Made by a program: the position numbers and the translations under genes. Positions 17,753 to 34,716 of a stretch of 34,863 nt of DNA are shown here, piece after piece (within the stretch, counting starts at the first letter, position 1; the number at the start of each line of letters is the position of its first letter). The notes under the pieces were generated by a model. The model was not told where the DNA came from. It saw only the letters and a program-made list of their open reading frames with translations, and made no database searches. Origin of the DNA: a virus. Location of the stretch: the IMG/VR virus record IMGVR_UViG_3300025101_000081, positions 1 to 34,863 of that record; one strand, 5' to 3'.

Positions 17753-18787
17753 ATGGCTGCAATCTCATTACAAAGAGAAACAACCAATAAGTGGCAAGAG
17801 TTATGTAAGTGGGTTACAAGCACAGACAACAGACTATACGTTGGTTGGTTCGGTGTACTTATGATCCCTGCATTACTTACAGCTGCAACCTGTTTTATTA
17901 TCGCCTTCATAGCTGCTCCACCTGTTGACATAGACGGGATACGTGAACCAGTTTCTGGCTCTCTACTCTATGGAAACAACATCATCTCTGGGGCAATCGT
18001 CCCGTCATCAAACGCAATCGGTCTGCACTTCTACCCAATCTGGGAGGCTGCAACCATTGACGAATGGCTCTACAATGGTGGGCCATACCAACTTATCGTA
18101 TTCCATTTCCTCATCGGTGTCTCTGCTTATATGGGACGACAATGGGAACTTAGTTACAGATTAGGTATGAGACCTTGGATAGCAGTAGCATACTCAGCTC
18201 CAGTCTCAGCAGCCTTTGCTGTATTTCTTGTCTACCCTTTCGGGCAGGGGAGTTTCAGTGATGGTATGCCTCTTGGTATTTCTGGTACTTTTAATTTCAT
18301 GTTTGTATTCCAAGCCGAACACAATATCCTTATGCACCCGTTCCATATGCTCGGTGTTCTTGGGGTATTCGGTGGTTCTCTTGCCTCTGCTATGCACGGA
18401 AGTCTTGTTACTTCTTCTCTTATCAAGGAGACAACTGCATTGGAAGCTCAGAACTATGGTTACAAATTTGGACAGGAAGAGGAGACATATAACATCGTTG
18501 CAGCTCACGGCTACTTCGGACGTTTACTTTTCCAATATGCAAGTTTTAACAATTCTCGCTCTCTACACTTCTTTCTGGCTGTTCTCCCCGTGGTTGGCAT
18601 ATGGTTTACCTCTATGGGTATAGCTACTATGGCATTTAACTTAAACGGTTTCAACTTCAACCAATCAGTTGTTGATGCAAACGGGAAGGTTATTCCCACA
18701 TGGGCTGACATAGTTAACAGACAGAACCTTGGATTCGAGGTAATGCACGAGCGTAACGCACATAATTTTCCACTAGACCTTGCATAG
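17753..18787 (+). CDS. psbA: Photosystem II reaction-centre protein D1
   Basis: Full D1 core in standard residue register: Tyr161 (redox Tyr), Asp170, Glu189, His190, His198, His215, Ser264, His272, His332, Glu333, His337, Asp342 and Ala344. All manganese-cluster, P680 and QB ligands are therefore present, and five membrane helices are evident. Residue 130 is Gln, the low-light D1 form. The protein stops at Ala344 (PLDLA), so it lacks the C-terminal extension that host CtpA normally removes. Differences from usual sequence include ASAMHGS where FSAMHGS is typical and [10 protein letters not shown] in the D-E loop. It replaces rapidly turned-over host D1 during infection. Confidence 0.98.
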
Positions 18788-20408: not shown

Positions 20409-21050
20409 ATGTCAGTAATATCTTACGGAGTGTCTACCGAACTAGATGCTGTAAACTCAATCTTGATGAGCGTTGGAGAATCCCCAGTTAATACTATAAC
20501 TAATGTGCAAAGCCCCGAAGTGGTTATGGCACAGACTACTCTAAGGCAAGTCTGCCGTGAGATACAATCTGAGGGATGGTCATACAACACAGAGAATGAG
20601 TATCCTATTGACACCGATACCAACAACCAAGTGGTAGTTCCTAATAATATACTACAGATGGATCTTAATATATTCCAGCATGGAAAAGATTATGATGTAG
20701 TAAGACGTAGTGATAACGGTGTAGCCAAAGTGTATGATAAAAAAGGTCATACATTTACATTTACAAATGTTAGTAAATTATTTTTTGATGTAATATGGAT
20801 GATAGATTTTGAAGATCTACCACAACCATTTAAAGATTACATCACCGCTAGAGCCTGTAGAATCGCCTCTAACCGTATGGTAAACAACCCGCAGTCTGCT
20901 AAGTTACTTGAAGCTGATGAAGCCTATGCAAGAGCCACTGCACTTGAGTACGATGCAAAGCAAGGCGACTATAATATCTTTAATGATTTCCAATATCAAC
21001 AAGATGCAAATACCGTGTATCGTCCATTTAAAGTATTGAGAAGAATGTAA
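20409..21050 (+). CDS. Tail tubular protein A (T7 gp11-like)
   Basis: A 213-residue adaptor/gatekeeper that joins portal to the tail. The N-terminal ELDAVNSILMSVGESPVNT matches T7 ELSAVNDILASIGEPPVST, and the later QSEGWSYNTE, LPQPFKDYITARACRIASNRM and EYDAKQGDYNIFND match the family. Stop and next start overlap (TAATG). Confidence 0.96.
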   Translation: MSVISYGVSTELDAVNSILMSVGESPVNTITNVQSPEVVMAQTTLRQVCREIQSEGWSYNTENEYPIDTDTNNQVVVPNNILQMDLNIFQHGKDYDVVRRSDNGVAKVYDKKGHTFTFTNVSKLFFDVIWMIDFEDLPQPFKDYITARACRIASNRMVNNPQSAKLLEADEAYARATALEYDAKQGDYNIFNDFQYQQDANTVYRPFKVLRRM

Positions 21051-24040
21051 TGCCAACAGTAAATCAACGTATCCCAAACTTTCTAGGGGGTGTATCTCAA
21101 CAGCCAGATAAAATTAAATTTCCAGGACAGGTAAGGGTATGTGATAATGCTGTCCCAGACATAACATTTGGTTTAAAAAAACGTCCAGCTGGAGAGTTTG
21201 TTAAGACCCTAACTAACGCAAACGGCACAGGATTTTGGTACGAAATTTTGAGAGATGGTGACGAAAAATATATTGTACAAATGACACCTGCTGCCAGTTA
21301 TTCTGGTACCAAACCTATACGTATATGGGATCTATCAACTGGTGTAGAACAAAGTCTCACTAATAGTAATGGGGATTCTTTATTTCAATACATGCAGCAG
21401 ACAGGTACACATAAAGAATATTCAATACAAACTATACAAGATTATACGATTATATGTAATCCACAAAAAACAGTAGGCACTACTGGAAATACCTTTTCAC
21501 CTATCCATAGCGGGGACTATTCTTATGCTAGGCTTGATACTGTGGCTTATAATACTGAGTATATATTATATTCTGGTACAGCACCTGCACCTAATACTTA
21601 TTTCAGAGTGACCTCTGTTAAAGTAGACAGGATGGTTGGAGGCAGTGCACAAGGCCCAACCTTTGATGACACAAACGAAGACCAAAGTAAATCTGGTACA
21701 TTGACGTGGTCATTCTCTGGAGGTAGTGCAGTTAATACCAGTGGTGCACAAGTAGGTGGTACAAATATTACAGAAAATATTGAGGGCAGTTTACAAGTTA
21801 ACGGTAATAGTTTTATTGCTAATAATACTGCTACTTATCAAGGTAATCAGACAAGTGATGAAACTAAATTCTTAGGATATATACAAGATTATGATGTTAG
21901 ATACACTGCTACAGTAACCCTACAAGACGGTGGTTTAATTAGGACTACTAATAAATCTACTGCAGAAGGACTATTTATAGACATTAGTTTAGAGGGAGAA
22001 ACTTATAGAATATCAGTTGAAGCTGTAGAACCAGTAACTACTTACAGAGATGTATCTGGCATAGCTTATTTTAAATCTCCAAAAAATCCAGACAATGGTG
22101 TGTTAAGTATGGCAACCATTCTAAGAGGTTTAAAAGATAAAGTTAATAGTGATCTATCTAACGTAACTGCTGAAGTTATAGGTAGTGGTTTGTTTATGCA
22201 CGGTTCCGCTGCAGATGGTGTCAACTTTCTTGGTGGTGCTGTCAATGAAAACATGAGTGTTATTGGTCAAAAGGCACAGGATATTAGTAGATTACCTGCT
22301 ATGTGTAAACACGGGTATGTTGCTCAAATAGCTAACACTGCTGACTTAGACGTTGATGATTACTATGTAGAGTTTATAGCTGATAATGGCGTGTCTGGAG
22401 CTGGTAGCTGGGAAGAATGTGTAAGACCTCATAACTTTTCATCTAATAGTGACCCCATGATTAAGGGTTTAGACCCCGCAACAATGCCACATGCACTTAT
22501 AAACAACCGTAATGGTACGTTTACATTTGTTAAATTAGATGAAGCTACAGCAAATTCACAAAATAATGAAAATTATTGGAAAGATAGAGTAGTAGGAGAC
22601 AACGCATCTAACCCTTTTCCTACATTTAACGGGTCAGAAATACAGGAAATATTTTTTCACAGAAATAGATTAGGGTTTATTGCGGGTGAAAACATAGTAA
22701 TGAGTAGACCTGGGGGTTACTTTAACTTCTTTATTGTGTCTGCTATATCCACCAGTGATGATAACCCCATAGATATAACAGTATCTGATGTAAAACCTGC
22801 GTTTATTAATCATACATTACCTATACAGAAAGGTTTATTGATGTTTAGTGATAACGGTCAATTCTTATTATTTACTGAGTCAGATATATTTAGTCCTAAA
22901 ACAGCTAGATTAAAAAAGGTAGCAAGTTACGAATGTGACTCTACCATACAACCTGTAGACCTTGGTACATCCGTACTATTTACATCTAATGTATCAGCCT
23001 ATGCTAGAGCATTTGAAGCTACAATATTAGATGATGATACACCGCCTAATATAACAGAACAGACTAGAGTAGTTCCAGAATTTTTACCAAAAGATATAAC
23101 TAAATCTGCTAACTCAGTACCTATTGGTCTTGTTACGTATGGTAAAAGAGGTGATACTGCAGTATATCATTACAAGTATTACAACGCTGGTCAAAGACGT
23201 GAACAGTCTGCGTGGTATAGTTGGACATTGACAGGTACAATGCAACATATACTATATACAGGTGGTAGCTTTTTTACTGTTACACTACAAGGTAGTGATT
23301 ATATCTTAAGTAGGTATGAATATGTAGCAGATGCTGATTCCACGAGAGCTTATGTGTTAGGTGGTACAGTGTCTGATGTAGGTTCACCTCTTAAAACAGC
23401 TCGTTGGTTTGAACCATGCCTTGATAACCTAGCTATAGCAAGTGTTGTTACAGGTACTGCACAAACTACAACATCTCCTGAGAAGACAGTATTAACAATA
23501 CCTTATACACCTACGGGTGCTACAAACTTTTTTATGGTAGGTATTTCTGGTAATGATAGCGATGGTAATTCTATCGTTGGGATTGTTAGAAAGGCAGATT
23601 CTGTTACTACAAATAGTGCAACATTTAATAATATAAATATTAGTAGCTCTGCTAAAGTAGCAGTAGGATATAGTTACACAAGTATTATAGAATTACCAAC
23701 CTACTATCTTAACAGAGGAGAAGCTAGATATGATACTGACGGTGAGTTACGTATATCTGGACTTAACTTTGAGTTAGGTGTTAGTGGCCCTATGCAGTTT
23801 AAAATTATTCCAACATTATCTAGTCGTAGTACCTACACTCAGTTTGAGTCTGGTATGTTGACAAACAATAGTAATTTTAACTCAGCTCCAGCTACACTAT
23901 CTAAATCAGTAAGAGTGCCTATACAAGCAAAGAACGAAAAGTATACTTTACAAATACAAATACCAGACCCATTTTCCACCGCCTTACTCTCAGCAAGCTG
24001 GGATGGCAACTACAACGAAAAAAGACATGTACGAAGGTAA
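21050..24040 (+). CDS. Tail tubular protein B / nozzle (T7 gp12-like)
   Basis: A 996-residue nozzle protein, larger than T7 gp12 (794). The N-terminus NQRIPNFLGGVSQQPDKIKFPGQ with DNAVPDITFGLKKRPAGEFV is the family signature. Later blocks include HRNRLGFIAGENIVMSRPG, FFIVSAISTSDDNPIDI, LPIQKGLLMFSDNGQFLL and YYLNRGEARYDTDGELRI. Extra length lies in a Thr/Ser/Gly-rich insertion at about residues 175-300. It forms the distal tail through which DNA leaves. It overlaps the next gene by 38 nt. Confidence 0.95.
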   Translation: MPTVNQRIPNFLGGVSQQPDKIKFPGQVRVCDNAVPDITFGLKKRPAGEFVKTLTNANGTGFWYEILRDGDEKYIVQMTPAASYSGTKPIRIWDLSTGVEQSLTNSNGDSLFQYMQQTGTHKEYSIQTIQDYTIICNPQKTVGTTGNTFSPIHSGDYSYARLDTVAYNTEYILYSGTAPAPNTYFRVTSVKVDRMVGGSAQGPTFDDTNEDQSKSGTLTWSFSGGSAVNTSGAQVGGTNITENIEGSLQVNGNSFIANNTATYQGNQTSDETKFLGYIQDYDVRYTATVTLQDGGLIRTTNKSTAEGLFIDISLEGETYRISVEAVEPVTTYRDVSGIAYFKSPKNPDNGVLSMATILRGLKDKVNSDLSNVTAEVIGSGLFMHGSAADGVNFLGGAVNENMSVIGQKAQDISRLPAMCKHGYVAQIANTADLDVDDYYVEFIADNGVSGAGSWEECVRPHNFSSNSDPMIKGLDPATMPHALINNRNGTFTFVKLDEATANSQNNENYWKDRVVGDNASNPFPTFNGSEIQEIFFHRNRLGFIAGENIVMSRPGGYFNFFIVSAISTSDDNPIDITVSDVKPAFINHTLPIQKGLLMFSDNGQFLLFTESDIFSPKTARLKKVASYECDSTIQPVDLGTSVLFTSNVSAYARAFEATILDDDTPPNITEQTRVVPEFLPKDITKSANSVPIGLVTYGKRGDTAVYHYKYYNAGQRREQSAWYSWTLTGTMQHILYTGGSFFTVTLQGSDYILSRYEYVADADSTRAYVLGGTVSDVGSPLKTARWFEPCLDNLAIASVVTGTAQTTTSPEKTVLTIPYTPTGATNFFMVGISGNDSDGNSIVGIVRKADSVTTNSATFNNINISSSAKVAVGYSYTSIIELPTYYLNRGEARYDTDGELRISGLNFELGVSGPMQFKIIPTLSSRSTYTQFESGMLTNNSNFNSAPATLSKSVRVPIQAKNEKYTLQIQIPDPFSTALLSASWDGNYNEKRHVRR

Positions 24041-24473
24041 GTATATTAAGCCTTGCACACCAGAGTTAGCTTTGAGTGTAGGGCTTAACCTACGTTACGA
24101 AGATAGACGAGAAGCCGAAGAAACCACAGGATTATGTGCGGAGGCTTCTATTCTTCAATCATTTTATGAATCAACTTATTCCGTGTATTTCACGGTTCCC
24201 AACGGCAAGGCTGCTGGAGTGGCGGGAGTGACACCGCACAATCTAATATGGATGTTATGTACTGATGCCAGCACAGAATATCCTCATACATTTGTTAAAG
24301 AAGCAAAACGCTGGGTAAACAGTTTACTTAATCCTTATTTGTGTAACCAAGCTGATATGCGTAATGAGTCACACATAAAATTATTGAAACTTTTAGGATT
24401 TACTTTACTTAATTATCATGTCTATAATGGAGTACCCTTAATACAATTTATTAAACCATGTGTACAGCAATAA
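24003..24473 (+). CDS. Internal/virion protein, T7 gp13-like, GNAT-like fold
   Basis: A 156-residue protein in the T7 gene 13 position. The C-terminal part (HIKLLKLLGFTLLNYHVYNGVPLIQF) resembles T7 gp13 (HIRFLKTIGAVF) and acetyltransferase-like folds, but the acetyl-CoA loop is not clear, so catalysis is doubtful. T7 gp13 is needed for virion assembly. ATG at 24003 lies within the nozzle gene; ATG at 24027 is an alternative. The 3' end overlaps the gp14 start. Confidence 0.75.
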   Translation: MATTTKKDMYEGKYIKPCTPELALSVGLNLRYEDRREAEETTGLCAEASILQSFYESTYSVYFTVPNGKAAGVAGVTPHNLIWMLCTDASTEYPHTFVKEAKRWVNSLLNPYLCNQADMRNESHIKLLKLLGFTLLNYHVYNGVPLIQFIKPCVQQ

Positions 24474-25198
24474 CAGCAATATCTGCTATAATGGGTGGTG
24501 CTTCAGCTATAGCGGGCATATCAGAACAAAATCGAGCCCATGCAAATCAAGTTGATGCTGTTAACCGTAGCAATGCTATGGCAAGGCAGAACTATCTAAA
24601 TCAAATACAAATATCTGCGTTTAACGATCAACGAAAAGGTGAGGTTTTTTCAGCTCAACTAAAAGCTGATGCTGCCTCAAGAACTGCATACTTTAGACAA
24701 AAAGAACTAAACCAAGCTGAAGCTACAAGAGCTGTTACAGCTCAAGATCAACAACTTAAAGAAAAAATAACAGAGCAAATGTTTGCTAGTCAAGCTAATT
24801 TATCTAAAGCTATAAAAGCACAGGGTACATTATTAGCTAGTGGCATGCCAGCTGGACAATCTATGTTGTTAGAATTTAATCAAATAGAAAGAGATCTAGG
24901 ATTTGCACAAGCACAGATTGATGCTACAGTGTTTGATGCTACTAGAGCTTACGGTATAGAACGTTATGGAATTGACCTCGATCAATACTCATCTAATGTT
25001 AAGGCAAATAATGCTATAACCACATCCGCTGCCGTAGCACCTACCGCATCATTTGAAACTGTACGTCCTATAGAACAAGCTGCTCCTCGAAAACCATCCC
25101 CACTTGGCCCTATACTTGGTGGTATTGGAACTGGATTTGCTACTGGAACAACTCTTGGTGGTAAAGAGTTCTGGTCTGGTGGAGATTGGAGAGGATAA
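24458..25198 (+). CDS. Internal virion protein B (T7 gp14-like)
   Basis: A 246-residue ejection protein expected to form the outer-membrane pore of the DNA-ejection channel. It begins MCTAITAISAIMGGASAIAG, as T7 gp14 begins MCWMAAIPIAISGAQAI, followed by a long Ala/Gln-rich helical region and a Gly-rich C-terminus (LGPILGGIGTGFATGTTLGG). Overlaps the preceding gene by 16 nt. Confidence 0.88.
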   Translation: MCTAITAISAIMGGASAIAGISEQNRAHANQVDAVNRSNAMARQNYLNQIQISAFNDQRKGEVFSAQLKADAASRTAYFRQKELNQAEATRAVTAQDQQLKEKITEQMFASQANLSKAIKAQGTLLASGMPAGQSMLLEFNQIERDLGFAQAQIDATVFDATRAYGIERYGIDLDQYSSNVKANNAITTSAAVAPTASFETVRPIEQAAPRKPSPLGPILGGIGTGFATGTTLGGKEFWSGGDWRG

Positions 25199-25204
25199 AT
25201 AATT

Positions 25205-28200
25205 ATGGCATATCAAAGAAGCACACAAGCTAGAGGTTTTAGAAACCGTGTAGCTCCAGATGAAACAAAAAGGTTATCATCTATCGCAACTGGTCTTGAA
25301 AAAAATAGAGTCAAAGACCTAAAAGCTATGACCCAACAAGCAAATGGGATTATAGCAGAACAAAAACGTGTTAACAATTTAGAAGCTCAAGCTGACGTTT
25401 ACGAGCTTAACAATCTACGTAAATTTAGTAAAGAACTAAGTGGATTTTTAGATAGCACTTTAAAAAATGTAGTGCAACCTGTAGTTGAAGGTCAAATTAA
25501 CGAAGGTATAAACGAAGGTATTAAAGCTAGTCAAGGTGACGAAGAAGCTCTTAACGCTGTTAAATTATCAGATCAACAAGAACTTGAATTAAAAGAAAAA
25601 ATATCAGAACAAAGATTAGCTACTGATACAGCAGTTACAAATCAAGAAAATACATGGGATGAAGCTGGTTATGAAGCTAGCCTTAGACAAAAATATAGGT
25701 TACTTAATCTTAAGAAACAAAACTCTAACTTTGCTATAGGTTTTAGAAAAGGACTTCTCATGGAGTCTGCTACTGGATGGGATGCTTTTAGAGATAGTGT
25801 ATTACTTGGATCATCAGACCATTCTCTTGCAAACGCTGAAGTACAATTAGAAAATGGAGATACAGTTAAATTTTCTGATTATTATTCTATTAAAGATTCT
25901 GATGTAAGAACAGAAATTTTAATGAAATTACAGAGAGCTTATATAGAAGAAAAGGGTTCTGGTTTAAGTAAAGTTCTTGTAAATAAATATCTAACAAAAC
26001 CAGTTTTAGAAAGAACAAATTTATTTGAACAAAAAGAATATCAAAAAGAAAGAGTTGAGTTTGCTACAAATCAATTAGATGATTATATAGAAAGTTTAAA
26101 GATAGAAGATTTTGCTCCGTTTGGCTCAGATAATTTAACAAACGATCAGACAGAAGAAGATTTAAAAAAAGCTGATTTAGCAATTCAAGAAATGTTTTCT
26201 ATATTTCCTGGAATTATGAAGGTATTGCATCCTAACGGAAGTTACAATGCTAAAGCTAAAGAAACTATGATGGCAGCTTTCATAGATCTTATGAAATCAG
26301 ATAAATATAATAATATGGATAGTCAAAATGATATACTAGACTATCTTTCAAGTGACAGATTTTATCTTCCAGGTGTATCTAAAGTTACTGGTAGAACCGA
26401 AGATGGTAAACCAATCTATGAGTTGTCTTCTATGGAAAAGTTGTTTGGTTCTAATTTTAGTAGAGATAACATACAAGCCAACTTATTAGCAGCTTTAGAA
26501 GATGAAGCAACAAAACAAGATAAAATAGATAAAAAGGTTTTTGACCAAAATTTATCTTCTATATTTACAGACCGTACATTAAGTGGGGCTGAACGTAAAG
26601 CAAAATTAGCAGCTCTTATGCAAGACGAAAGGTTTGCTGGTAAGGCTTGGGCTAATACTAAATTGAAACAATTTGATTCTAGTTTTGAGTACTTTACTCC
26701 TTTTAGTAAAGAAGAATCTGAATCTTATATGGATCAGTTAGCTTCTAAATATTTAGTAGATGAAGGTGGTGTAATACCTTTAAGTTTAATTAATGTAACA
26801 CAGGTAGATGCAAGTGTATTAGAAAGGTATGTAAAAGATGGTGCTGTAGGTAATTATTTTGAAGATGACCCTACTGCAAAGAACGCTCATGTAGCAGCTT
26901 TAGATAGTTTAAATTCTTTAACAGCAGTGATGTTTAAAGATTTAGAAATAGAAGAAACTATGGCAACAATGCAAAAAGATGCAGCGTCAGCATATTATAG
27001 TAATAAACTCATAGCTCTAGCTAAATCTTACCAGTCAACTAATAGTAATATGAGTAAGACGCAAGCTATGAAACTTGCGGGGGCTTTCTTAGAGCAACAA
27101 CTTAAAGCTCAAAATGCTTCTATTTTTGATAAAGCTGGACAACTTAATTTAGGTGAAGTTGACCCAAACATACAACTTAAAACTGGTGTAGAGGGATGGG
27201 AAGGTACTAGGTTTTGGACATTAGAATCTGAAGAAGGTATAGTTAGTCCTACAAATATGTTTAAACAAAGTAGAGCTATACTAGAAAGATTTACTCAATT
27301 ACAAAACGATAGTCAAGGTGTTGATATATTTACCACTGAATCAATTATTAAAAATCCTATATTTTTTAAATTAATTGGAGGTAGACCTCAAGGTATATTT
27401 AATGAATTATCTAAAGCTAGTGCTACAGGTCAACACCCTGCTGTGATATATAATAAACAACTTGTTTTAAATGGTGGGACAGCTGTAGAATGGCCAGAAA
27501 CTTTACAGAAAGAGATTGATACATGGGAAGACTTAACACCAGCTGTAAGAAAAACCTTATTAAGTGGAGATAAAACTCAGATTAACAATGCTGTCAGAGA
27601 TTCTGGTCGCATTGATACAAGTAGTTTATTAAATACTTTTATAACTCCAGACGGTTCTATACCTATAAGTGAAACAGAATTTGCAAGATATTTACCTCCA
27701 GAACATAAAGGAACTACATATGAAGATTTTATATCTAACCCTAAATTAGTAGAAAAAGCATTAAAAGTCAAATTATTTGAAGGAATAAAATTAGCTGATG
27801 CAAAAACAAATAATTTTGATATATTATTACGTATGGTTAGTGCACATATGTTAACAGGGGATATAGATAATTGGAACTCTGAAGAGTATGGAGATCATAC
27901 TATAGCCATATTAAACTCTTATCATACTGGTAGCACAACTCCTATTGATAAATTCTTTAAAAATAATAAATTAAATCGAAATATATTTAATTCTAATTTA
28001 CAGTTAGATCAATCCTTTATTGGTAAGGGTGAAGATATATTAACAGTAGATATAGCTACTAATCTTGATGATCTTAATTTACAAATAGAAGAATTTAATA
28101 AATTAGAAATACCTGAAAAAATGCAAATCATTAAGAGTTATGGTTTGTTAGAAAATAAAAATGATGCAGATGCTATATTTGGTCTTGGTTTAGCTAGTGG

Positions 28201-29122
28201 TACTTTAAGAAAATTACTTAATCAACATCACGATTTTGAACCAAATCCAGCTTATGTACAATGGTCTAACCGTAAAAAACAATTTGAAAACACTCGTAAA
28301 GTTTTAAATTATTTGTCTACTAATAATATAACTGATATGCTAAATAATGTAGCATTGGCTACACAGTTTTCAAGTAATAAAGATGTGTTAACATATGTTG
28401 TTTATCCAGCAGTTAAATCTATTATTGGTCAAGAACGTATAGATGATATTAAAGATAGAGCTCTTGAAACTTATAACAATGGTGAATCTGCAAGTTTTGA
28501 CGAAGCTTTCAAAGCTATACTAACTAGACAACCAGAGTTTGCTAATAGTCCAACTACGATAAAAGATACAAATTTAGTAGGTAAAATTAATAATTATGCT
28601 ATAGATGGTACTATGAACGGAAGAGTATTTCCAGAAGATTTAGTGCCGTTAACAGGTTATGAAAATAGTTTTAACAGTAAAATTCAGCGTAGCCCTAGTA
28701 CTTGGAGCAGAGCATTTAGCACTAATTTAGGTGGTCAGATACTTATTAGAAGAGATGCTTATGCAGAGGTAAAAGGTTTCTTAGATGCTGCTAATGATGC
28801 AGGTGTCTTTATAGGTTTAAACGAAGGGTATAGAAGTTACGAAGAACAAAAAAGATTATTTAATCTTAAAGAATCTGGTGTAAAATTTAATGATTCTGCT
28901 GTTCAAAAACCTGGAAAATCTAATCATGGAGCTGGTACAGCTATAGACATTAACTGGGCTGATAAAGAATCTTATGATTGGGTTTTAGCTAATCACAAAA
29001 AATTTAATTTATGTCCACATAAAAACATAACACCACCAAATCAAAACAGTAAAGATCCAGAATCTTGGCACTTTACATGGGATCCTACGGGAACTTGCCA
29101 AGTTGCTATTGATGAACGCTAA
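25205..29122 (+). CDS. Internal core protein (T7 gp15 position) with C-terminal M15 peptidase domain
   Basis: A 1305-residue ejection protein; T7 gp15 is 747. Residues 1 to about 1170 are helical, charged and A/T-rich in coding, typical of the internal core. Residues about 1176-1305 form an M15 (VanY / D-Ala-D-Ala carboxypeptidase-like) domain: GYRSYEEQ (Arg1210), SNHGAGTAIDI with zinc ligands His1241 and Asp1248, and ESWHFTW with Glu1286 and His1289. This domain would cut peptide cross-links in host peptidoglycan during DNA entry. In T7 the wall-degrading activity sits instead at the N-terminus of gp16 as a transglycosylase. No such domain is evident in the gp16-like neighbour, so this one may substitute for it. 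Confidence 0.9.
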   Translation: MAYQRSTQARGFRNRVAPDETKRLSSIATGLEKNRVKDLKAMTQQANGIIAEQKRVNNLEAQADVYELNNLRKFSKELSGFLDSTLKNVVQPVVEGQINEGINEGIKASQGDEEALNAVKLSDQQELELKEKISEQRLATDTAVTNQENTWDEAGYEASLRQKYRLLNLKKQNSNFAIGFRKGLLMESATGWDAFRDSVLLGSSDHSLANAEVQLENGDTVKFSDYYSIKDSDVRTEILMKLQRAYIEEKGSGLSKVLVNKYLTKPVLERTNLFEQKEYQKERVEFATNQLDDYIESLKIEDFAPFGSDNLTNDQTEEDLKKADLAIQEMFSIFPGIMKVLHPNGSYNAKAKETMMAAFIDLMKSDKYNNMDSQNDILDYLSSDRFYLPGVSKVTGRTEDGKPIYELSSMEKLFGSNFSRDNIQANLLAALEDEATKQDKIDKKVFDQNLSSIFTDRTLSGAERKAKLAALMQDERFAGKAWANTKLKQFDSSFEYFTPFSKEESESYMDQLASKYLVDEGGVIPLSLINVTQVDASVLERYVKDGAVGNYFEDDPTAKNAHVAALDSLNSLTAVMFKDLEIEETMATMQKDAASAYYSNKLIALAKSYQSTNSNMSKTQAMKLAGAFLEQQLKAQNASIFDKAGQLNLGEVDPNIQLKTGVEGWEGTRFWTLESEEGIVSPTNMFKQSRAILERFTQLQNDSQGVDIFTTESIIKNPIFFKLIGGRPQGIFNELSKASATGQHPAVIYNKQLVLNGGTAVEWPETLQKEIDTWEDLTPAVRKTLLSGDKTQINNAVRDSGRIDTSSLLNTFITPDGSIPISETEFARYLPPEHKGTTYEDFISNPKLVEKALKVKLFEGIKLADAKTNNFDILLRMVSAHMLTGDIDNWNSEEYGDHTIAILNSYHTGSTTPIDKFFKNNKLNRNIFNSNLQLDQSFIGKGEDILTVDIATNLDDLNLQIEEFNKLEIPEKMQIIKSYGLLENKNDADAIFGLGLASGTLRKLLNQHHDFEPNPAYVQWSNRKKQFENTRKVLNYLSTNNITDMLNNVALATQFSSNKDVLTYVVYPAVKSIIGQERIDDIKDRALETYNNGESASFDEAFKAILTRQPEFANSPTTIKDTNLVGKINNYAIDGTMNGRVFPEDLVPLTGYENSFNSKIQRSPSTWSRAFSTNLGGQILIRRDAYAEVKGFLDAANDAGVFIGLNEGYRSYEEQKRLFNLKESGVKFNDSAVQKPGKSNHGAGTAIDINWADKESYDWVLANHKKFNLCPHKNITPPNQNSKDPESWHFTWDPTGTCQVAIDER

Positions 29123-29124
29123 TT

Positions 29125-32100
29125 ATGAATGAAGATGATTTAATGAGTTTGGGTACTGTTGAGGATCAAGGAGAAACTACGGTTAATGATCCTAGACGGT
29201 ACATAGACCATTCAGATGAAACCCTCGATGCTGCTGCAAAAGAGGGTCAAATCTTGCTAGACAACGCTGCTAAGGCAGAGGAGCTAGCACAACCTAATGC
29301 AGAACAAGTAGCAGCTCAAGAGGCTGCTGACAAAGATCAAGGTTTAATAGCTGATAACCCCGCACAGGCTGTTACAGAAGTTGGTAAAGCTTTGTACGGT
29401 GGTGCGACTGATGCTGTAGAAAGTATTGGTAGTTTCCTTGATTTAACAGGTGATAGTATAACATCTATTGCTGCTAAGATACAGGGTACTCCTGTAGAAA
29501 AAGGGCAAGATCCTATATTTAACAATAAAGAGTATAGAGAACTAGGAGGTAATAAACCTGTTGGTTTTTTAGATATACCCGAAAGATTTGAAGTAGAAAA
29601 TCATTCTGGTGTAGGTAAACTTACACGTGGAATGGTTGAGTTTGGTTTGTTAGTAAAAGCAACCTCTGTAACAGGAGGTGCATTAGCACCAAGTTTGTTT
29701 GGAAAAACAGCTGCGTTTGCTAATAAAGTTAGAGGTGCAAAATTATTAAGAGGAGCATTGAAATCAAAAGCTCCTATAATTGGTGGTGCTGTACGAGGTG
29801 TAGCAAGAACAGGAAAAGGTGCAAAGTTAATTAAATTTATACCTAAAGGTGCATCTATAGCTGCAGAGGGTTCTGTTGCTGATCTTATATCATCGTCCTC
29901 TGATTATGCTAACATGGCTAATTTAGTAAACGAGTATATACCTTGGTTACCTTTTTCAGAATTTCTTGCTGTTGACCCAGATAAGGATAACCCTTGGGTT
30001 GCTAAAACAAAAACTATCCTAGCGGGGGGAGGAGCAAACTTAGCTTTTTATGGGCTTATGTCTTTTGCAAGAGGTGCTCATGCTGCCCGTAAAGCCCGTT
30101 TAGAAGGTAAGTCTATTGAAGAATCTAATGCTATTGGTAACAAAGCTGCAGAAAATAGTTTAAATAATGACCTTGCTAATGAGTATAAACAACGTGAAGA
30201 TTTAAAAGCAGAAGATGTTAGGAATAAAAAAGGTATACCAGAAGATCCTTTAGAAGAATATGTTGTAGCTAACTTAGACGAAGAGTTAGGTCAGTTATAT
30301 ATTAATTTAACTAGAGGTAACTTGTTTGAGGTTGTTGGTTTAGATACATACTATCATGGCAGTGCTAAAGGACTTCCAGGGGATTACCCTTATGTAACTA
30401 AAGGAGAAAGGATTTGGAGAGATGATAACTTATTTGGTAATGGTTTTTATACTGTTAACGATCTTACAGTGTCTACAGGAAACAGAGTAGACGGTGAAGG
30501 ATTAACAGTAAAGTTAGATCCTAAAGGATTTAAAAAAGTTGTTTATAGAGTTAAGCAGAAAAAACCAGTAAGATTTTTTGATGCTGAAAAACCTTTTTCT
30601 TTTGACGATCAATCTCCAGAGGCACAGATTATTAAAAAACTAGGGTATTTAGATGAGTCTGGTAATTTAGATAGTGTATGGCCTTCAACAGGTAGTATAA
30701 GTTATTCTGATTATTTAAGTGCATTAAAAGATCAACAACTATATCCTAGGTCAGAGCTTGTAAATATGTTAGATAATTTACACGCAGAGTTACAACAATT
30801 AGGTTATGGTGGTATTGAGTACAACGGTAAACAAGGGGTAAGAAATCACAAGGTAAGAGTTTATTGGGATCCAGATACACAGATTGATTTAGATAAATAT
30901 AATTTAGCTAATAGAAATCCAGATGTAGATGCAGAGTTACCTATATTTGAGTCTGGTAATTTTAAATACAGACCTCCTAGAAAACCTTGGAAAACTAACC
31001 TTGAAGCTGAAAGAGGGCTTGCAGGTAGTCGAGGTGCTCAATATATTATGGACAGGTTAGAACGTAGATTTTTAACTGAAGGTGTAGACGCATACGAAGC
31101 TAGAGAAATACAACAATTTATAGATACTATTGGAGATAGATTCTTTGGTGATGTATCTTTATCTATAACTAATAAATTAAATGTTCAAGGTCGTTTTAAT
31201 TTTGGTAATAAATTAATTGAAATCCAAAAAAAAGCGATGGAAGAAGAGGGTTTAACTCATACTATGATACATGAGTTATGGCATACTTTGTCAAGGTATT
31301 TACCTTCTACAGACGTTAAAAGATTAAATGTAGAGTTTCAAAATCGTAAAAGAACTTTCTTAGCTAGTGGTTCTGAAGATGCTAAATTATTTAACAAAAA
31401 GAAATATACACTTACAAATTACCGTTACAAAAATTTAGACGAGTGGTTTGCTGAAACTATGACGGACGAATTTTATAAGTATATGGATGAGACTAGCTCA
31501 CTAGCCCCTGCAGGTACTTTAAAACGTGTTGCTCAAGAATTTGGTATATTACTAAAAGACATGTATGCAGCTGTTGCATCTAGAGTAGGTGGTTCACAAG
31601 CTAGGCGTATTTTCAGTAATTATAAAAAACAACTTTACGAAAATATGCAACGTGACTTTACTTTAGAAATGGATTTAGTAGGTCAAGGTAAGTGGAATCC
31701 ATTTTACGATGATGATGATTTTATTACCAGTAAAGATATTGATGAAACAGATCCAGAAAGTTTTAAGCGACCTAAAGCTGAAGATCTTAGAAAACAAGCA
31801 TTTGAAGCAGGTGAAGAGATTGGAGATCCTTGGTTTGATGATATAGGTCAATCATATAAAAATGCTAACGCTGAAAAACGTGCAACCCCAGATAGAAACC
31901 CAGATAGATTTAATGATAGTCAGAAGTCTGTTATACCAGATGATGAAAACGTAGCATCAGCTACAGATAAATTAATTGGTGAAGTTGTAGCTACGGGAGA
32001 ACGCCCTAGCACTCAAGTTATCTCAGAAAAAATTTTAAGAAGATTAGCAGACGGTAGCGAAGATGTATACAAATATGTTAAAGAATTTTCTGAAGAATTG

Positions 32101-34716
32101 GCGACAAAAATCTTTAAAGGTTTAGATAACAGATTTGATTATACAAAAGTACAAGCTAGAATACTAGAAGCTACTGATGAATTGTATAGTAGAATCATAA
32201 AAGACGTTGATAGAGGTCGTCCTGTAGGGTCATATTTTAATGAAGATAGTCCTAATTATGTTAAATATGTGCATGATGGACAGAAGGTTATTGTAGGTAC
32301 TGCAGAAGAAAAAGTTGCTTTAGACTTTATAATACAAACATTATCTAAAAGGGCATCATTATTAGCTAAAGGTGCTATGGATTTACCCCCTGGAATTGAT
32401 GTAAAACGTCAACTAAACATGGCAAATGATGCTATGGTTATTGCTTTACGTGAATACAAAAAAATGGGTTATATGGCTGGTAGTCAACTAGAACGTATGA
32501 ATCCAAATTCTGTTAGATTAACTCCAGAGGTACGTGCAGATATAGAAGAAAATTTAAAACGAATAGATGAAGAGTTTGATTTATTTCAACAAGAATTAAG
32601 ACGTATAACTGAGGAAGGCACTGTCGAACAACGAGATACATTGTTAGAATTACATACTTTATCTGGAGGTAGCGTTATTACTTTTGATGACGCTAAAGAG
32701 TTTATTAGAGTGTCTACTAGAGGTGGTCGTTTTAAAGGTAAAGATTATAGATCTGGTATAAGAGAACAACTAAGAGGTGTATTTTATCATTCAGTTTTAA
32801 GTGGCCCTCGTACAGCTGTAAAAGCTATTTTTGGTACTAATTTAATTGCAGTATTAAGACCATACCAAGCATGGTTAGGTGCTACATTAGCAGGTAGTAA
32901 GAAAGAAGCTGTTATAGCATCTGCTCAAATAGCAGGTATAAACGAAATGTTCCAAGATAGTCTTAAATTATTTAAACATAATTGGGATTTAGGCGTTAAT
33001 AGACAAGCACAAACTTACGTTGGTAAATTTAATATTGAAACAAATACTGCTCAATTTAAAGCTATGGGCAAATATGTTGAACAATATGGCACACCAAACG
33101 AAATGGCATATTATAAGATTGCCGAGACTTTATTAGATTTTAACAACTCTCCTTGGGTTCGTTATTCTGTTAATGCTATGGGAGCTGGTGATGCTGTTGC
33201 TCGTCATCTTTTAGGTAGATTTGAAATGCGTATGCGAGCTGCTAGAAAAGCAATAGATGATGGTGTTGATTTAGATGACGTGGTAGAAGTAGCTGCTAGA
33301 ACTGAAGATAATTTTAAAGGTGAGATATTTAAAACAGATAAATATGGTATGGATGTAGTTAGTGATCGAGCTGCTACTCTTGCTGGGGACGAAACTGCTC
33401 TTACTAAAGCTTTAAGTTCTAGCAATAAAGGGTTAGAAGCTATAGGTCAAAAAACTGGTTTTAGATTTTTCTTTCCATTTGTAAGGACTGGTATTAATGC
33501 TATTGATTTAACATGGCAACACACTCCTTTATTGGCAAGATTTAATCAAAAATTTAAAGATTTAATAGAATTTGAACGTACAGGCGGTAACGCAAACGTT
33601 ATATTAAAAGAATATGGTATTAGAAAAGCTGATATACCACAAGCTATTGCTTTAGCTAGAGGTAGAGTGGCTGCAAGTACTATGTTAGTAAGCATCGCAG
33701 CTATGGCTGCAGCTACTGGTAATTTAACTGGTATGATGCCTAACGATAAAGAGACTAGAGATCTTTGGAGATTAAATAAAATACAACCTAACTCTATAAA
33801 AATTGGAGATACTTATTTTTCTTATGCAGATATAGAACCATATAACACTTTATTAACTTCAGTTGCTAACGTATTAAACTATCAATATGCTTTAGGTGAG
33901 GATGTACGTGATAATTTCTTTGAAAAAATAGTATTTATGGGTGCTGCTGTTATTGTTGACAAATCTATGTTAGCTGGTGTTGAAGATTTATCTCAATTAC
34001 TTAGTGGACAAACAAGTGATGTAGCGGTGCAACGTATATTTGCTAAACTAGCCCGTTCTTCTTTACCTTATGCTGGTCTTAGTGCTTCTTTAGGTAACCT
34101 TATGGATGAAAATGAACGAGTTAGTAGAGGTTTCTTAGAAACAATGATAAGAAGAGATGCAATATTTAAACAAGGTTTACCGCCAAAGTATGATATATTA
34201 ACAAAAGGTAACGAGGCTGTACCATTTACACCATATACAAGCAATCCATTATTAAAATTCTGGAACGCTATAACTCCCTTTGCTGTTACCTATGCTGGTA
34301 ATGACAAAGTCAAGACGGCTTTACGAGATATAAGCTTTAACTTACCAGAAACATTAAGAACCTGGCGAGGCGAAGAATTAAACTCTTTTGAACAATCAGA
34401 ACTTCAACGATATTTAGCTGAAAGTCCTTTGTATGATAGATTAGATAGATTAGTTTCGTCTAACAGATGGCAAAGTGACTTTAAGAAATTTAAAGAGTTA
34501 GGTTTGATGAAACGGGAAGGGTTTAGACCTATAGATCAAAAGTTTTATCTTGATGTTCAACGCATATTTTTAGATGAAAAGAAGAAAGCTTTACAATTAA
34601 TGCGTAGAGATCATCCAGATCTTTACAGACGTATACTTTCTAGGAAACAATCCACCTTCTATGGTAAAAAAGGTAATTTAAATATGTTAGGAGAACTACA
34701 AAAACACGGAATTTAA
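29125..34716 (+). CDS. Giant internal core protein (T7 gp16 position) with ART-like and zincin-like segments
   Basis: An 1863-residue ejection protein; T7 gp16 is 1318. The N-terminus is acidic and then Gly/Ala-rich (to about 320), without a recognisable transglycosylase. Residues about 406-592 resemble ADP-ribosyltransferase-like domains of polyvalent phage proteins: YYHGSAKG (His411), FGNGFYTVND (439-446), and a closing GYGGIEYNGKQG...VYWDP. Residues about 705-785 resemble a gluzincin: HELWH (716-720) and a downstream LDEWFAETMTDEF (Glu777 a likely third ligand). The C-terminal third has Ala/Gly-rich hydrophobic stretches near 1510-1560, as expected for the trans-envelope tube. Start ATG at 29125 follows the gp15 stop by two bases. 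Confidence 0.88.
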   Translation: MNEDDLMSLGTVEDQGETTVNDPRRYIDHSDETLDAAAKEGQILLDNAAKAEELAQPNAEQVAAQEAADKDQGLIADNPAQAVTEVGKALYGGATDAVESIGSFLDLTGDSITSIAAKIQGTPVEKGQDPIFNNKEYRELGGNKPVGFLDIPERFEVENHSGVGKLTRGMVEFGLLVKATSVTGGALAPSLFGKTAAFANKVRGAKLLRGALKSKAPIIGGAVRGVARTGKGAKLIKFIPKGASIAAEGSVADLISSSSDYANMANLVNEYIPWLPFSEFLAVDPDKDNPWVAKTKTILAGGGANLAFYGLMSFARGAHAARKARLEGKSIEESNAIGNKAAENSLNNDLANEYKQREDLKAEDVRNKKGIPEDPLEEYVVANLDEELGQLYINLTRGNLFEVVGLDTYYHGSAKGLPGDYPYVTKGERIWRDDNLFGNGFYTVNDLTVSTGNRVDGEGLTVKLDPKGFKKVVYRVKQKKPVRFFDAEKPFSFDDQSPEAQIIKKLGYLDESGNLDSVWPSTGSISYSDYLSALKDQQLYPRSELVNMLDNLHAELQQLGYGGIEYNGKQGVRNHKVRVYWDPDTQIDLDKYNLANRNPDVDAELPIFESGNFKYRPPRKPWKTNLEAERGLAGSRGAQYIMDRLERRFLTEGVDAYEAREIQQFIDTIGDRFFGDVSLSITNKLNVQGRFNFGNKLIEIQKKAMEEEGLTHTMIHELWHTLSRYLPSTDVKRLNVEFQNRKRTFLASGSEDAKLFNKKKYTLTNYRYKNLDEWFAETMTDEFYKYMDETSSLAPAGTLKRVAQEFGILLKDMYAAVASRVGGSQARRIFSNYKKQLYENMQRDFTLEMDLVGQGKWNPFYDDDDFITSKDIDETDPESFKRPKAEDLRKQAFEAGEEIGDPWFDDIGQSYKNANAEKRATPDRNPDRFNDSQKSVIPDDENVASATDKLIGEVVATGERPSTQVISEKILRRLADGSEDVYKYVKEFSEELATKIFKGLDNRFDYTKVQARILEATDELYSRIIKDVDRGRPVGSYFNEDSPNYVKYVHDGQKVIVGTAEEKVALDFIIQTLSKRASLLAKGAMDLPPGIDVKRQLNMANDAMVIALREYKKMGYMAGSQLERMNPNSVRLTPEVRADIEENLKRIDEEFDLFQQELRRITEEGTVEQRDTLLELHTLSGGSVITFDDAKEFIRVSTRGGRFKGKDYRSGIREQLRGVFYHSVLSGPRTAVKAIFGTNLIAVLRPYQAWLGATLAGSKKEAVIASAQIAGINEMFQDSLKLFKHNWDLGVNRQAQTYVGKFNIETNTAQFKAMGKYVEQYGTPNEMAYYKIAETLLDFNNSPWVRYSVNAMGAGDAVARHLLGRFEMRMRAARKAIDDGVDLDDVVEVAARTEDNFKGEIFKTDKYGMDVVSDRAATLAGDETALTKALSSSNKGLEAIGQKTGFRFFFPFVRTGINAIDLTWQHTPLLARFNQKFKDLIEFERTGGNANVILKEYGIRKADIPQAIALARGRVAASTMLVSIAAMAAATGNLTGMMPNDKETRDLWRLNKIQPNSIKIGDTYFSYADIEPYNTLLTSVANVLNYQYALGEDVRDNFFEKIVFMGAAVIVDKSMLAGVEDLSQLLSGQTSDVAVQRIFAKLARSSLPYAGLSASLGNLMDENERVSRGFLETMIRRDAIFKQGLPPKYDILTKGNEAVPFTPYTSNPLLKFWNAITPFAVTYAGNDKVKTALRDISFNLPETLRTWRGEELNSFEQSELQRYLAESPLYDRLDRLVSSNRWQSDFKKFKELGLMKREGFRPIDQKFYLDVQRIFLDEKKKALQLMRRDHPDLYRRILSRKQSTFYGKKGNLNMLGELQKHGI

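What the first reader, a model, noticed from the sequence alone, without database searches (positions are those of the whole stretch)
30340..31480. Ejection protein carries ADP-ribosyltransferase-like and zinc-protease-like segments
Seen: in the gp16-position protein, YYHGSAKG, FGNGFYTVND and a terminal GGIEYNG..VYWDP follow the layout of ART-like domains in phage polyvalent proteins, and about 120 residues later HELWH plus LDEWFAE forms a gluzincin-type metal site. Known: T7-type gp16 is ejected into the host before the genome, and phage T4 injects the ART Alt. Inference: this phage may deliver two host-modifying enzymes with its DNA, for example to modify host RNA polymerase or to process ejection proteins. 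I know of no described T7-like core protein with this pair.
Basis: partly seen in the sequence, partly recalled or inferred. Interest (0 to 1): 0.82.

Follow-up and report, generated by a model that had tools for sequence, protein, structure and literature searches.

The report
Cyanophage ejection protein carrying two enzyme-like domains
An uncultured T7-like cyanophage has an extra ADP-ribosyltransferase-like domain and a zinc-protease-like domain built into the large protein that such phages are expected to push into the host with their DNA, so it may deliver ready-made host-modifying enzymes in the first moments of infection.

Summary
Window 29125-34716 encodes an intact 1863-aa internal virion protein at the gp16 position of a psbA-bearing T7-like cyanophage. 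Residues ~404-590 are an ADP-ribosyltransferase (ART)-like domain. The AlphaFold model (pLDDT 77) matches mainly ART folds: the cyanophage A-4L ejection protein (9k3a), RES toxin, diphtheria toxin, tankyrase. Distant members weakly hit Pfam ART-PolyVal and DUF3990. Residues ~610-850 are zincin-like, resting on sequence: H716/E717/H720 and E777 are invariant in 18 diverse members and match N4-type vRNAP zincins by hhalign. The zincin fold model was uninformative. Both are inserted cassettes. Cultured relatives have neither, sister phages have ART only, and a single clade has both. dN/dS is 0.10-0.42, so they are maintained. His411, Tyr442, Tyr474 and His575 are invariant in 46 members, but the Asp of polyvalent-type ARTs is Gly here. 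The general idea is known: polyvalent proteins, including roseophage vRNAPs, carry the same ART-then-zincin order. New here is the pair on a T7-type gp16-position protein, in a family found in uncultured phages only, with a non-standard active site. Best reading: ejected ART effector plus a zincin that processes it or hits a host target.

The parts
29125..34716 (+). gp16-position internal virion (ejection) protein, 1863 aa, host polypeptide of both cassettes
   Evidence: single open frame; phrog_6651 'internal virion protein' E 4.4e-248; follows phrog_457 nozzle, phrog_308, gp14 (PF24072) and gp15
30334..30894 (+). ART-like cassette, residues ~404-590
   Evidence: alignment of 46 non-redundant relatives; AlphaFold2 pLDDT 77.5, pTM 0.75; Foldseek PDB hits mainly ART superfamily and polyvalent viral proteins
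30355..30357 (+). His411, first ART active-site residue (YHG)
   Evidence: 46/46 conserved
30448..30450 (+). Tyr442, second ART active-site residue (GNGFY)
   Evidence: 46/46 conserved
30544..30546 (+). Tyr474, invariant
   Evidence: 46/46 conserved
30808..30810 (+). Gly562, site of the Asp of Tox-ART-HYD2-type domains; acid missing
   Evidence: G in 41, D in 5 of 46; D in the GYDG motif of the RPP1 vRNAP ART
30847..30849 (+). His575, invariant; candidate replacement for the third catalytic residue
   Evidence: 46/46 conserved; at the start of the last long strand of the model
30952..31674 (+). zincin-like cassette, residues ~610-850
   Evidence: alignment of 18 non-redundant relatives; hhalign to N4-type vRNAP zincin E 1.6e-4; ATLF/SprT/M90 Pfam hits below cut-off
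31270..31284 (+). HELWH, residues 716-720, zinc-binding and catalytic motif
   Evidence: H, E, H 18/18 conserved
31438..31455 (+). DEWFAE, residues 772-777, presumed third zinc ligand (Glu777 or Glu773)
   Evidence: D, E, F, A, E 18/18 conserved
25205..29122 (+). gp15-position protein, 1305 aa, with C-terminal VanY-type peptidase domain
   Evidence: PF02557 E 1.4e-13
24458..25198 (+). gp14 homologue
   Evidence: PF24072 T7_gp14 E 2.8e-8; phrog_15746
21050..24040 (+). nozzle protein (gp12)
   Evidence: PF25675 E 1.3e-150; 65% identical to Cyanophage 9515-10a
17753..18787 (+). psbA (photosystem II D1), marks a cyanobacterial host
   Evidence: PF00124 E 2.7e-88

Best explanation
The gp16-position ejection protein of this T7-like cyanophage is a polyvalent effector. 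Two enzyme-type cassettes sit at one site between its N-terminal region and its conserved core: first a H-Y type ART-like domain, then a gluzincin-type metallopeptidase-like domain. Shown by computation: both domains are present, intact, conserved at active-site positions, under purifying selection, and distributed as expected for stepwise gain (none, then ART, then ART plus zincin). Inferred: the protein is packed in the internal core and passes into the cell before the DNA, as T7 gp16 does, and the cassettes end up on the cytoplasmic side. There the ART-like domain uses NAD+ to modify a host (or incoming-DNA-associated) target to favour early infection, and the zincin cuts either the ejection protein itself, to free or activate the ART part, or a host protein.
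For: ART: AlphaFold model whose PDB hits are mainly ART folds: 9k3a_B E 3e-4 prob 1.00, RES toxin prob 0.96, diphtheria toxin, tankyrase, ParT, NatT. BFVD hits are polyvalent/ParB large phage proteins and 'PolyVal ADP-Ribosyltransferase'. Distant members hit ART-PolyVal 3.3e-4 and DUF3990 8.3e-4; the profile's best PDB sequence hit is PARP16 over the YHG..GxGxY region, though weak (0.21). Zincin: invariant HExxH plus DExFAE in 18 members; hhalign to N4-type vRNAP zincins E 1.6e-4 and 0.009, against controls 0.42-0.49. Modularity. Function kept: dN/dS 0.10-0.21 (ART) and 0.11-0.42 (zincin). Position: synteny in the window and in the distant ART family. The same ART-then-zincin order occurs in roseophage vRNAPs. 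T7 gp16 topology: N-terminal 228 residues periplasmic, 411-1118 modelled in the cytoplasm between two membrane regions (PMC8954989); in the window protein and its close relative L002 the weak hydrophobic stretches also flank cassettes plus core.
Against: No enzymatic test. The third catalytic acid of the ART is missing, so it could be an NAD+ binder, a mono-ART of unusual chemistry, or a dead fold. TM-scores of the ART hits are low (about 0.3-0.5). No Pfam hit for either domain reaches the curated cut-off. The zincin model is poor and its fold search returned only noise. Profile homology to T7 gp16 itself was not detected, so ejection is inferred from gene order and family name.
Confidence: 0.6

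Rival explanations
1. The zincin is a self-processing protease: it acts on the ejection protein during head maturation or after ejection, and only the ART is a host-directed effector.
For: Proposed for polyvalent proteins in general (P1 DdrB is processed before packaging; PMC5512222). In this clade the zincin lies directly behind an ART that its sister phages carry alone.
Against: Zincin-only ejection proteins without any ART are common (L058, L059, L115-L134, L143-L152), so the zincin does not depend on an ART to release; N4 vRNAP is packaged unprocessed although it has the domain (PMC5512222).
Confidence: 0.4
2. The cassettes are structural or scaffolding domains that kept the fold but not catalysis, helping core assembly or DNA handling.
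For: The third ART acid is lost in 41 of 46 members. An ART-like fold is part of the pre-ejectosome model of A-4L. Phages lacking both cassettes have viable, cultured relatives.
Against: His411 and Tyr442, and the zinc-site residues, are invariant over divergent families (many at 24-33% identity to the window), which a dead scaffold does not need; presence or absence varies within the gp16 family, unlike a structural necessity.
Confidence: 0.25
3. The ART is a counter-defence enzyme, acting on a host NAD+-dependent or nucleic-acid defence, rather than on host RNA polymerase.
For: A review links virion-packaged ARTs with NAD+-based conflicts (PMC9503650); the phage encodes its own RNA polymerase (PF00940), so reprogramming host RNAP is less obviously needed beyond the first genes.
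Against: No target evidence of any kind; T4 Alt, the prototype of an ejected ART, hits host RNAP (PMC5512222).
Confidence: 0.35
4. Assembly or recombination artefact: the cassettes are a chimera in one metagenome contig.
For: The window is an uncultured-virus contig.
Against: The same architecture in eleven contigs (window's own record included) from different metagenomes; the carriers form one clade with 100/100 support.
Confidence: 0.01

Closest known systems
N4-like roseophage virion RNA polymerases (Roseovarius Plymouth podovirus 1 CBX87992.1, DSS3phi2, EE36phi1, R7L, DS-1410Ws-06)
   Same: Ejected giant virion protein; ART-like domain followed 230-390 residues later by a HExxH zincin; relatives with zincin only exist (V13, vBDshPR2C)
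   Different: Carrier is an RNA polymerase of Schitoviridae, not a T7-type core protein; the RPP1 ART keeps the GYDG Asp and passes the ART-PolyVal cut-off; similarity to the window ART is weak (hhalign E 0.01)
Anabaena phage A-4L gp27, PDB 9k3a chain B, pre-ejectosome
   Same: Best structural match of the ART model (E 3e-4, prob 1.00); ejection-complex protein of a short-tailed cyanophage; YHG..GSGTYF motif in its C-terminal part
   Different: Different phage family (Saffermanviridae), ART-like part near the C-terminus, no HExxH zincin motif seen, 15% identity; I could not read its paper (Hou et al. 2025, PMC12002296) to see whether the authors name it an ART
Polyvalent proteins of phages and conjugative elements (Iyer et al. 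2017, PMC5512222)
   Same: ART and zincin-like metallopeptidase fused to large early-delivered proteins
   Different: Carrier here is a T7-type gp16-position protein; a term search of that paper found no 'T7-like' or 'cyanophage'
Phage T4 Alt
   Same: ART delivered from the head with the DNA
   Different: R-S-E class ART (PMC5512222), a separate protein, no zincin
gp16-position proteins of Tangaroavirus (Cyanophage 9515-10a, P-SSP10, NATL2A-133)
   Same: Same protein family; 35-37% identical outside the insert, same gene order in 9515-10a
   Different: Neither cassette

Membership tests
ADP-ribosyltransferase superfamily (H-Y class) | ART fold | tested here: met
   Model with PDB hits mainly ART structures, best TM about 0.3-0.5, so fold level only
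ADP-ribosyltransferase superfamily (H-Y class) | His in strand 1 and Tyr in strand 2 | tested here: met
   His411 and Tyr442 invariant in 46, in model strands E38-42 and E70-73
Tox-ART-HYD2 / ART-PolyVal | Asp in strand 5 | tested here: not met
   Gly562 in window; Asp in 5 of 46 relatives only
Tox-ART-HYD2 / ART-PolyVal | Pfam PF18760 above gathering score | tested here: not met
   Window: no hit; best relative 21.9 against 31.2 bits
ADP-ribosyltransferase superfamily (H-Y class) | NAD+ binding and ADP-ribosyl transfer | not testable with these tools
   needs enzyme assay
Zincin-like metallopeptidase (gluzincin type) | HExxH helix | tested here: met
   HELWH invariant H,E,H 18/18, in helix 115-130 of the model
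Zincin-like metallopeptidase (gluzincin type) | Glu ligand in a following helix | tested here: met
   DExFAE invariant 18/18, in helix 176-196 of the model; which Glu binds zinc not shown
Zincin-like metallopeptidase (gluzincin type) | three-stranded sheet before the HExxH helix | tested here: inconclusive
   region 83-100 mostly below pLDDT 50, no strands modelled, fold search gave noise; hhalign aligns this stretch with vRNAP zincin
Zincin-like metallopeptidase (gluzincin type) | above curated cut-off of a zincin Pfam family | tested here: not met
   ATLF 0.0023, SprT-like 0.023, M90 0.027 at best; window hits below cut-off
T7-type gp16 core/ejection protein | gene order nozzle, gp14, gp15, gp16 | tested here: met
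T7-type gp16 core/ejection protein | sequence homology to T7 gp16 | tested here: inconclusive
   hhalign E 0.35 with a single T7 sequence; phrog_6651 named internal virion protein
T7-type gp16 core/ejection protein | present in virion and ejected | not testable with these tools
   needs proteomics or infection experiment
Polyvalent protein | two or more unrelated enzymatic domains in one early-delivered polypeptide | tested here: inconclusive
   two domains in one frame; early delivery inferred only

The most novel reading that the evidence does not exclude
The domain is a phage-confined branch of the ART superfamily that has replaced the third catalytic acid by an invariant His (His411/Tyr442/Tyr474/His575) and does different NAD+ chemistry, carried into marine bacteria by ejection proteins of many uncultured T7-like phages and paired in one clade with a metallopeptidase.
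Probability: 0.3. Interest if true: 0.75.

Novelty: new variant of a known kind. Interest (0 to 1): 0.6.

Why it matters
Ejected enzymes act before any phage gene is expressed. If this is right, a set of marine T7-like phages delivers ART-like and protease-like domains on its core protein, and the clean series none, ART, ART plus zincin gives matched natural comparisons. T7 gp16 is usually described as a peptidoglycan hydrolase plus a DNA-binding ejection protein; here the same position serves as a carrier for swappable effectors. None of the cultured phages searched has these domain families, so they would be missed by work on isolates.

Tried and rejected
Pfam, NCBIfam, PHROGs and PDB sequence searches with the window domains gave nothing above cut-off. 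tblastn for the domains in 50,697 phage records gave nothing credible. Fold search with the zincin model gave noise. hhalign to T7 gp16 not significant. RAP1 and designed-protein hits to the zincin profile are taken as chance. The ATLF Pfam hit was not taken as membership: below cut-off, and the metal-site motif is shared widely. Assembly chimera rejected (eleven contigs). A scan of 84,980 prokaryote species genomes found the ART family once, in a 45-kb Cyanobium MAG contig (L162), so a cellular origin is not supported. The paper on the A-4L structure was not held.

Full report
What is there. The window is the greater part of a T7-like cyanophage genome: phage RNA polymerase, primase-helicase, family A DNA polymerase, a ribonucleotide reductase barrel domain, psbA, portal, nozzle, gp14- and gp15-position proteins, and at its end an intact 1863-aa protein at the gp16 position (29125-34716). 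The nozzle is 65% identical to that of Cyanophage 9515-10a, Tangaroavirus. PHROGs names the family of the 1863-aa protein 'internal virion protein' (phrog_6651, E 4e-248).

The finding region is an insert. tblastn against cultured phages aligns the protein on both sides but not over residues ~375-875. Aligning orthologues shows a graded series at one site: 9515-10a, P-SSP10, NATL2A-133 and contig L010 have neither domain; L007, L008, L009, L025, L026, L030 and L033 have the ART-like part; the window and ten other contigs have the ART-like part followed directly by the zincin-like part. (One record, L001, is identical in protein to the window and is counted as the window's own.) A maximum-likelihood tree of the shared core puts all both-carriers in one clade (100/100), sister to ART-only phages, within a grade of phages that lack both. 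That reads as stepwise gain, though losses cannot be excluded and the deepest ART-bearing join has only 81/91 support.

The families are wide. Profile-guided scans of IMG/VR gave 46 non-redundant ART-like and 18 non-redundant zincin-like members. They lie mostly in long proteins; in the distant ART family (L064) the carrier again follows nozzle, phrog_308, gp14 and gp15-position genes, while a few members sit in other proteins (for example L100, next to a head protein). Some 30 contigs have the zincin without the ART; none outside the window clade had both by these profiles. In 84,980 prokaryote genomes the ART family appeared once, in a 45-kb Cyanobium MAG contig.

ART-like domain. The AlphaFold model (pLDDT 77.5, pTM 0.75) matches in the PDB first the ejection protein gp27 of cyanophage A-4L (9k3a, E 3e-4, prob 1.00), then RES toxin, diphtheria toxin, tankyrase, ParT and NatT, mixed with a few unrelated low-probability hits. 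Chain 9k3a_B is A-4L gp27, whose C-terminal part contains YHG and GSGTYF. Against viral models the best hits are large ParB or polyvalent phage proteins. Distant family members hit ART-PolyVal (3.3e-4) and DUF3990 (8.3e-4) over the first two motifs, all below the curated cut-off. His411, Tyr442, Tyr474 and His575 are invariant in 46. The defining Asp of the polyvalent ART clade (PMC5512222) is Gly562 here and Asp in only 5 of 46. By motif alignment the PARP catalytic Glu position is Val577; this last step is my own reading, not a structural superposition. So it is ART-like with an altered third position; activity is plausible, not shown.

Zincin-like domain. H716, E717, H720 and the downstream YR...DExFAE are invariant over 18 divergent members. 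hhalign against the second zincin of N4-like roseophage vRNAPs gives E 1.6e-4, and the first one 0.009, aligning the stretch before and in the HExxH helix; mismatched controls give 0.42-0.49. The structure model did not build the sheet and the fold search was empty, so this assignment rests on sequence.

Selection. Pairwise dN/dS is 0.10-0.21 for the ART part and 0.11-0.42 for the zincin part, compared with 0.10-0.21 for the core; the zincin evolves faster in some pairs but stays well below 1. Some pairs are near saturation at synonymous sites, so those values are rough.

How it most likely works. In T7, gp16 residues 1-228 stay in the periplasmic tunnel and 411-1118 are modelled in the host cytoplasm, between two membrane regions (PMC8954989). 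In the window protein weak hydrophobic stretches lie near 170-188 (286-307 in L002) and near 1507-1620, flanking cassettes plus core. By analogy the cassettes would be presented in the cytoplasm. The ART would then modify a host target at once; the zincin either frees it by cutting the long protein or cuts a host protein. Only the presence, conservation and distribution of the domains are shown; ejection, location, activity and targets are inferred.

What is known. Polyvalent proteins with ARTs and zincins are established (PMC5512222), including ART plus zincin on the N4-like vRNAP of Roseovarius Plymouth podovirus 1; I saw that order by motif in five roseophages and the zincin motif without the ART motif in two. 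Virion-packaged ARTs in phages are reviewed in PMC9503650. I found no paper on an ART or zincin in a T7-type gp16-position protein, but subscription papers, including the A-4L structure paper, were not readable. I rate this a new variant of a known kind.

Noticed in passing
25205-29122: The gp15-position protein carries a C-terminal VanY-type D-Ala-D-Ala peptidase domain (E 1.4e-13); in T7 the wall-cutting domain sits on gp16. A zincin-only relative (L122) has a transglycosylase-type match in its gp15-position protein.
   Followed up: partly
1537-2427: C-5 cytosine-specific DNA methylase (PF00145, E 1e-46) near the left end.
   Followed up: no
17753-18787: psbA (D1) between scaffold and capsid genes, as in 9515-10a; marks a cyanobacterial host.
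   Followed up: partly
L153:20116-25269 (Anabaena phage A-4L gp27): Solved pre-ejectosome protein with an ART-like C-terminal part that Pfam misses; annotated only as 'tail protein'.
   Followed up: partly
L035, L038 (2605-aa carriers): ART-like domain plus a different HExxH motif (HEAVH, residue ~1375) not matched by the zincin profile: possibly an independent ART plus metallopeptidase pairing.
   Followed up: no
L162:2469-3032: ART-family member in a 45-kb contig binned with a Cyanobium MAG, perhaps a co-binned cyanophage.
   Followed up: no
L105, L107 and a few other outlying members of A5: Outlying ART-like members, some in short (about 290 aa) proteins, that still have the Asp of the GYDG motif; may mark the ancestral active site.
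   Followed up: partly
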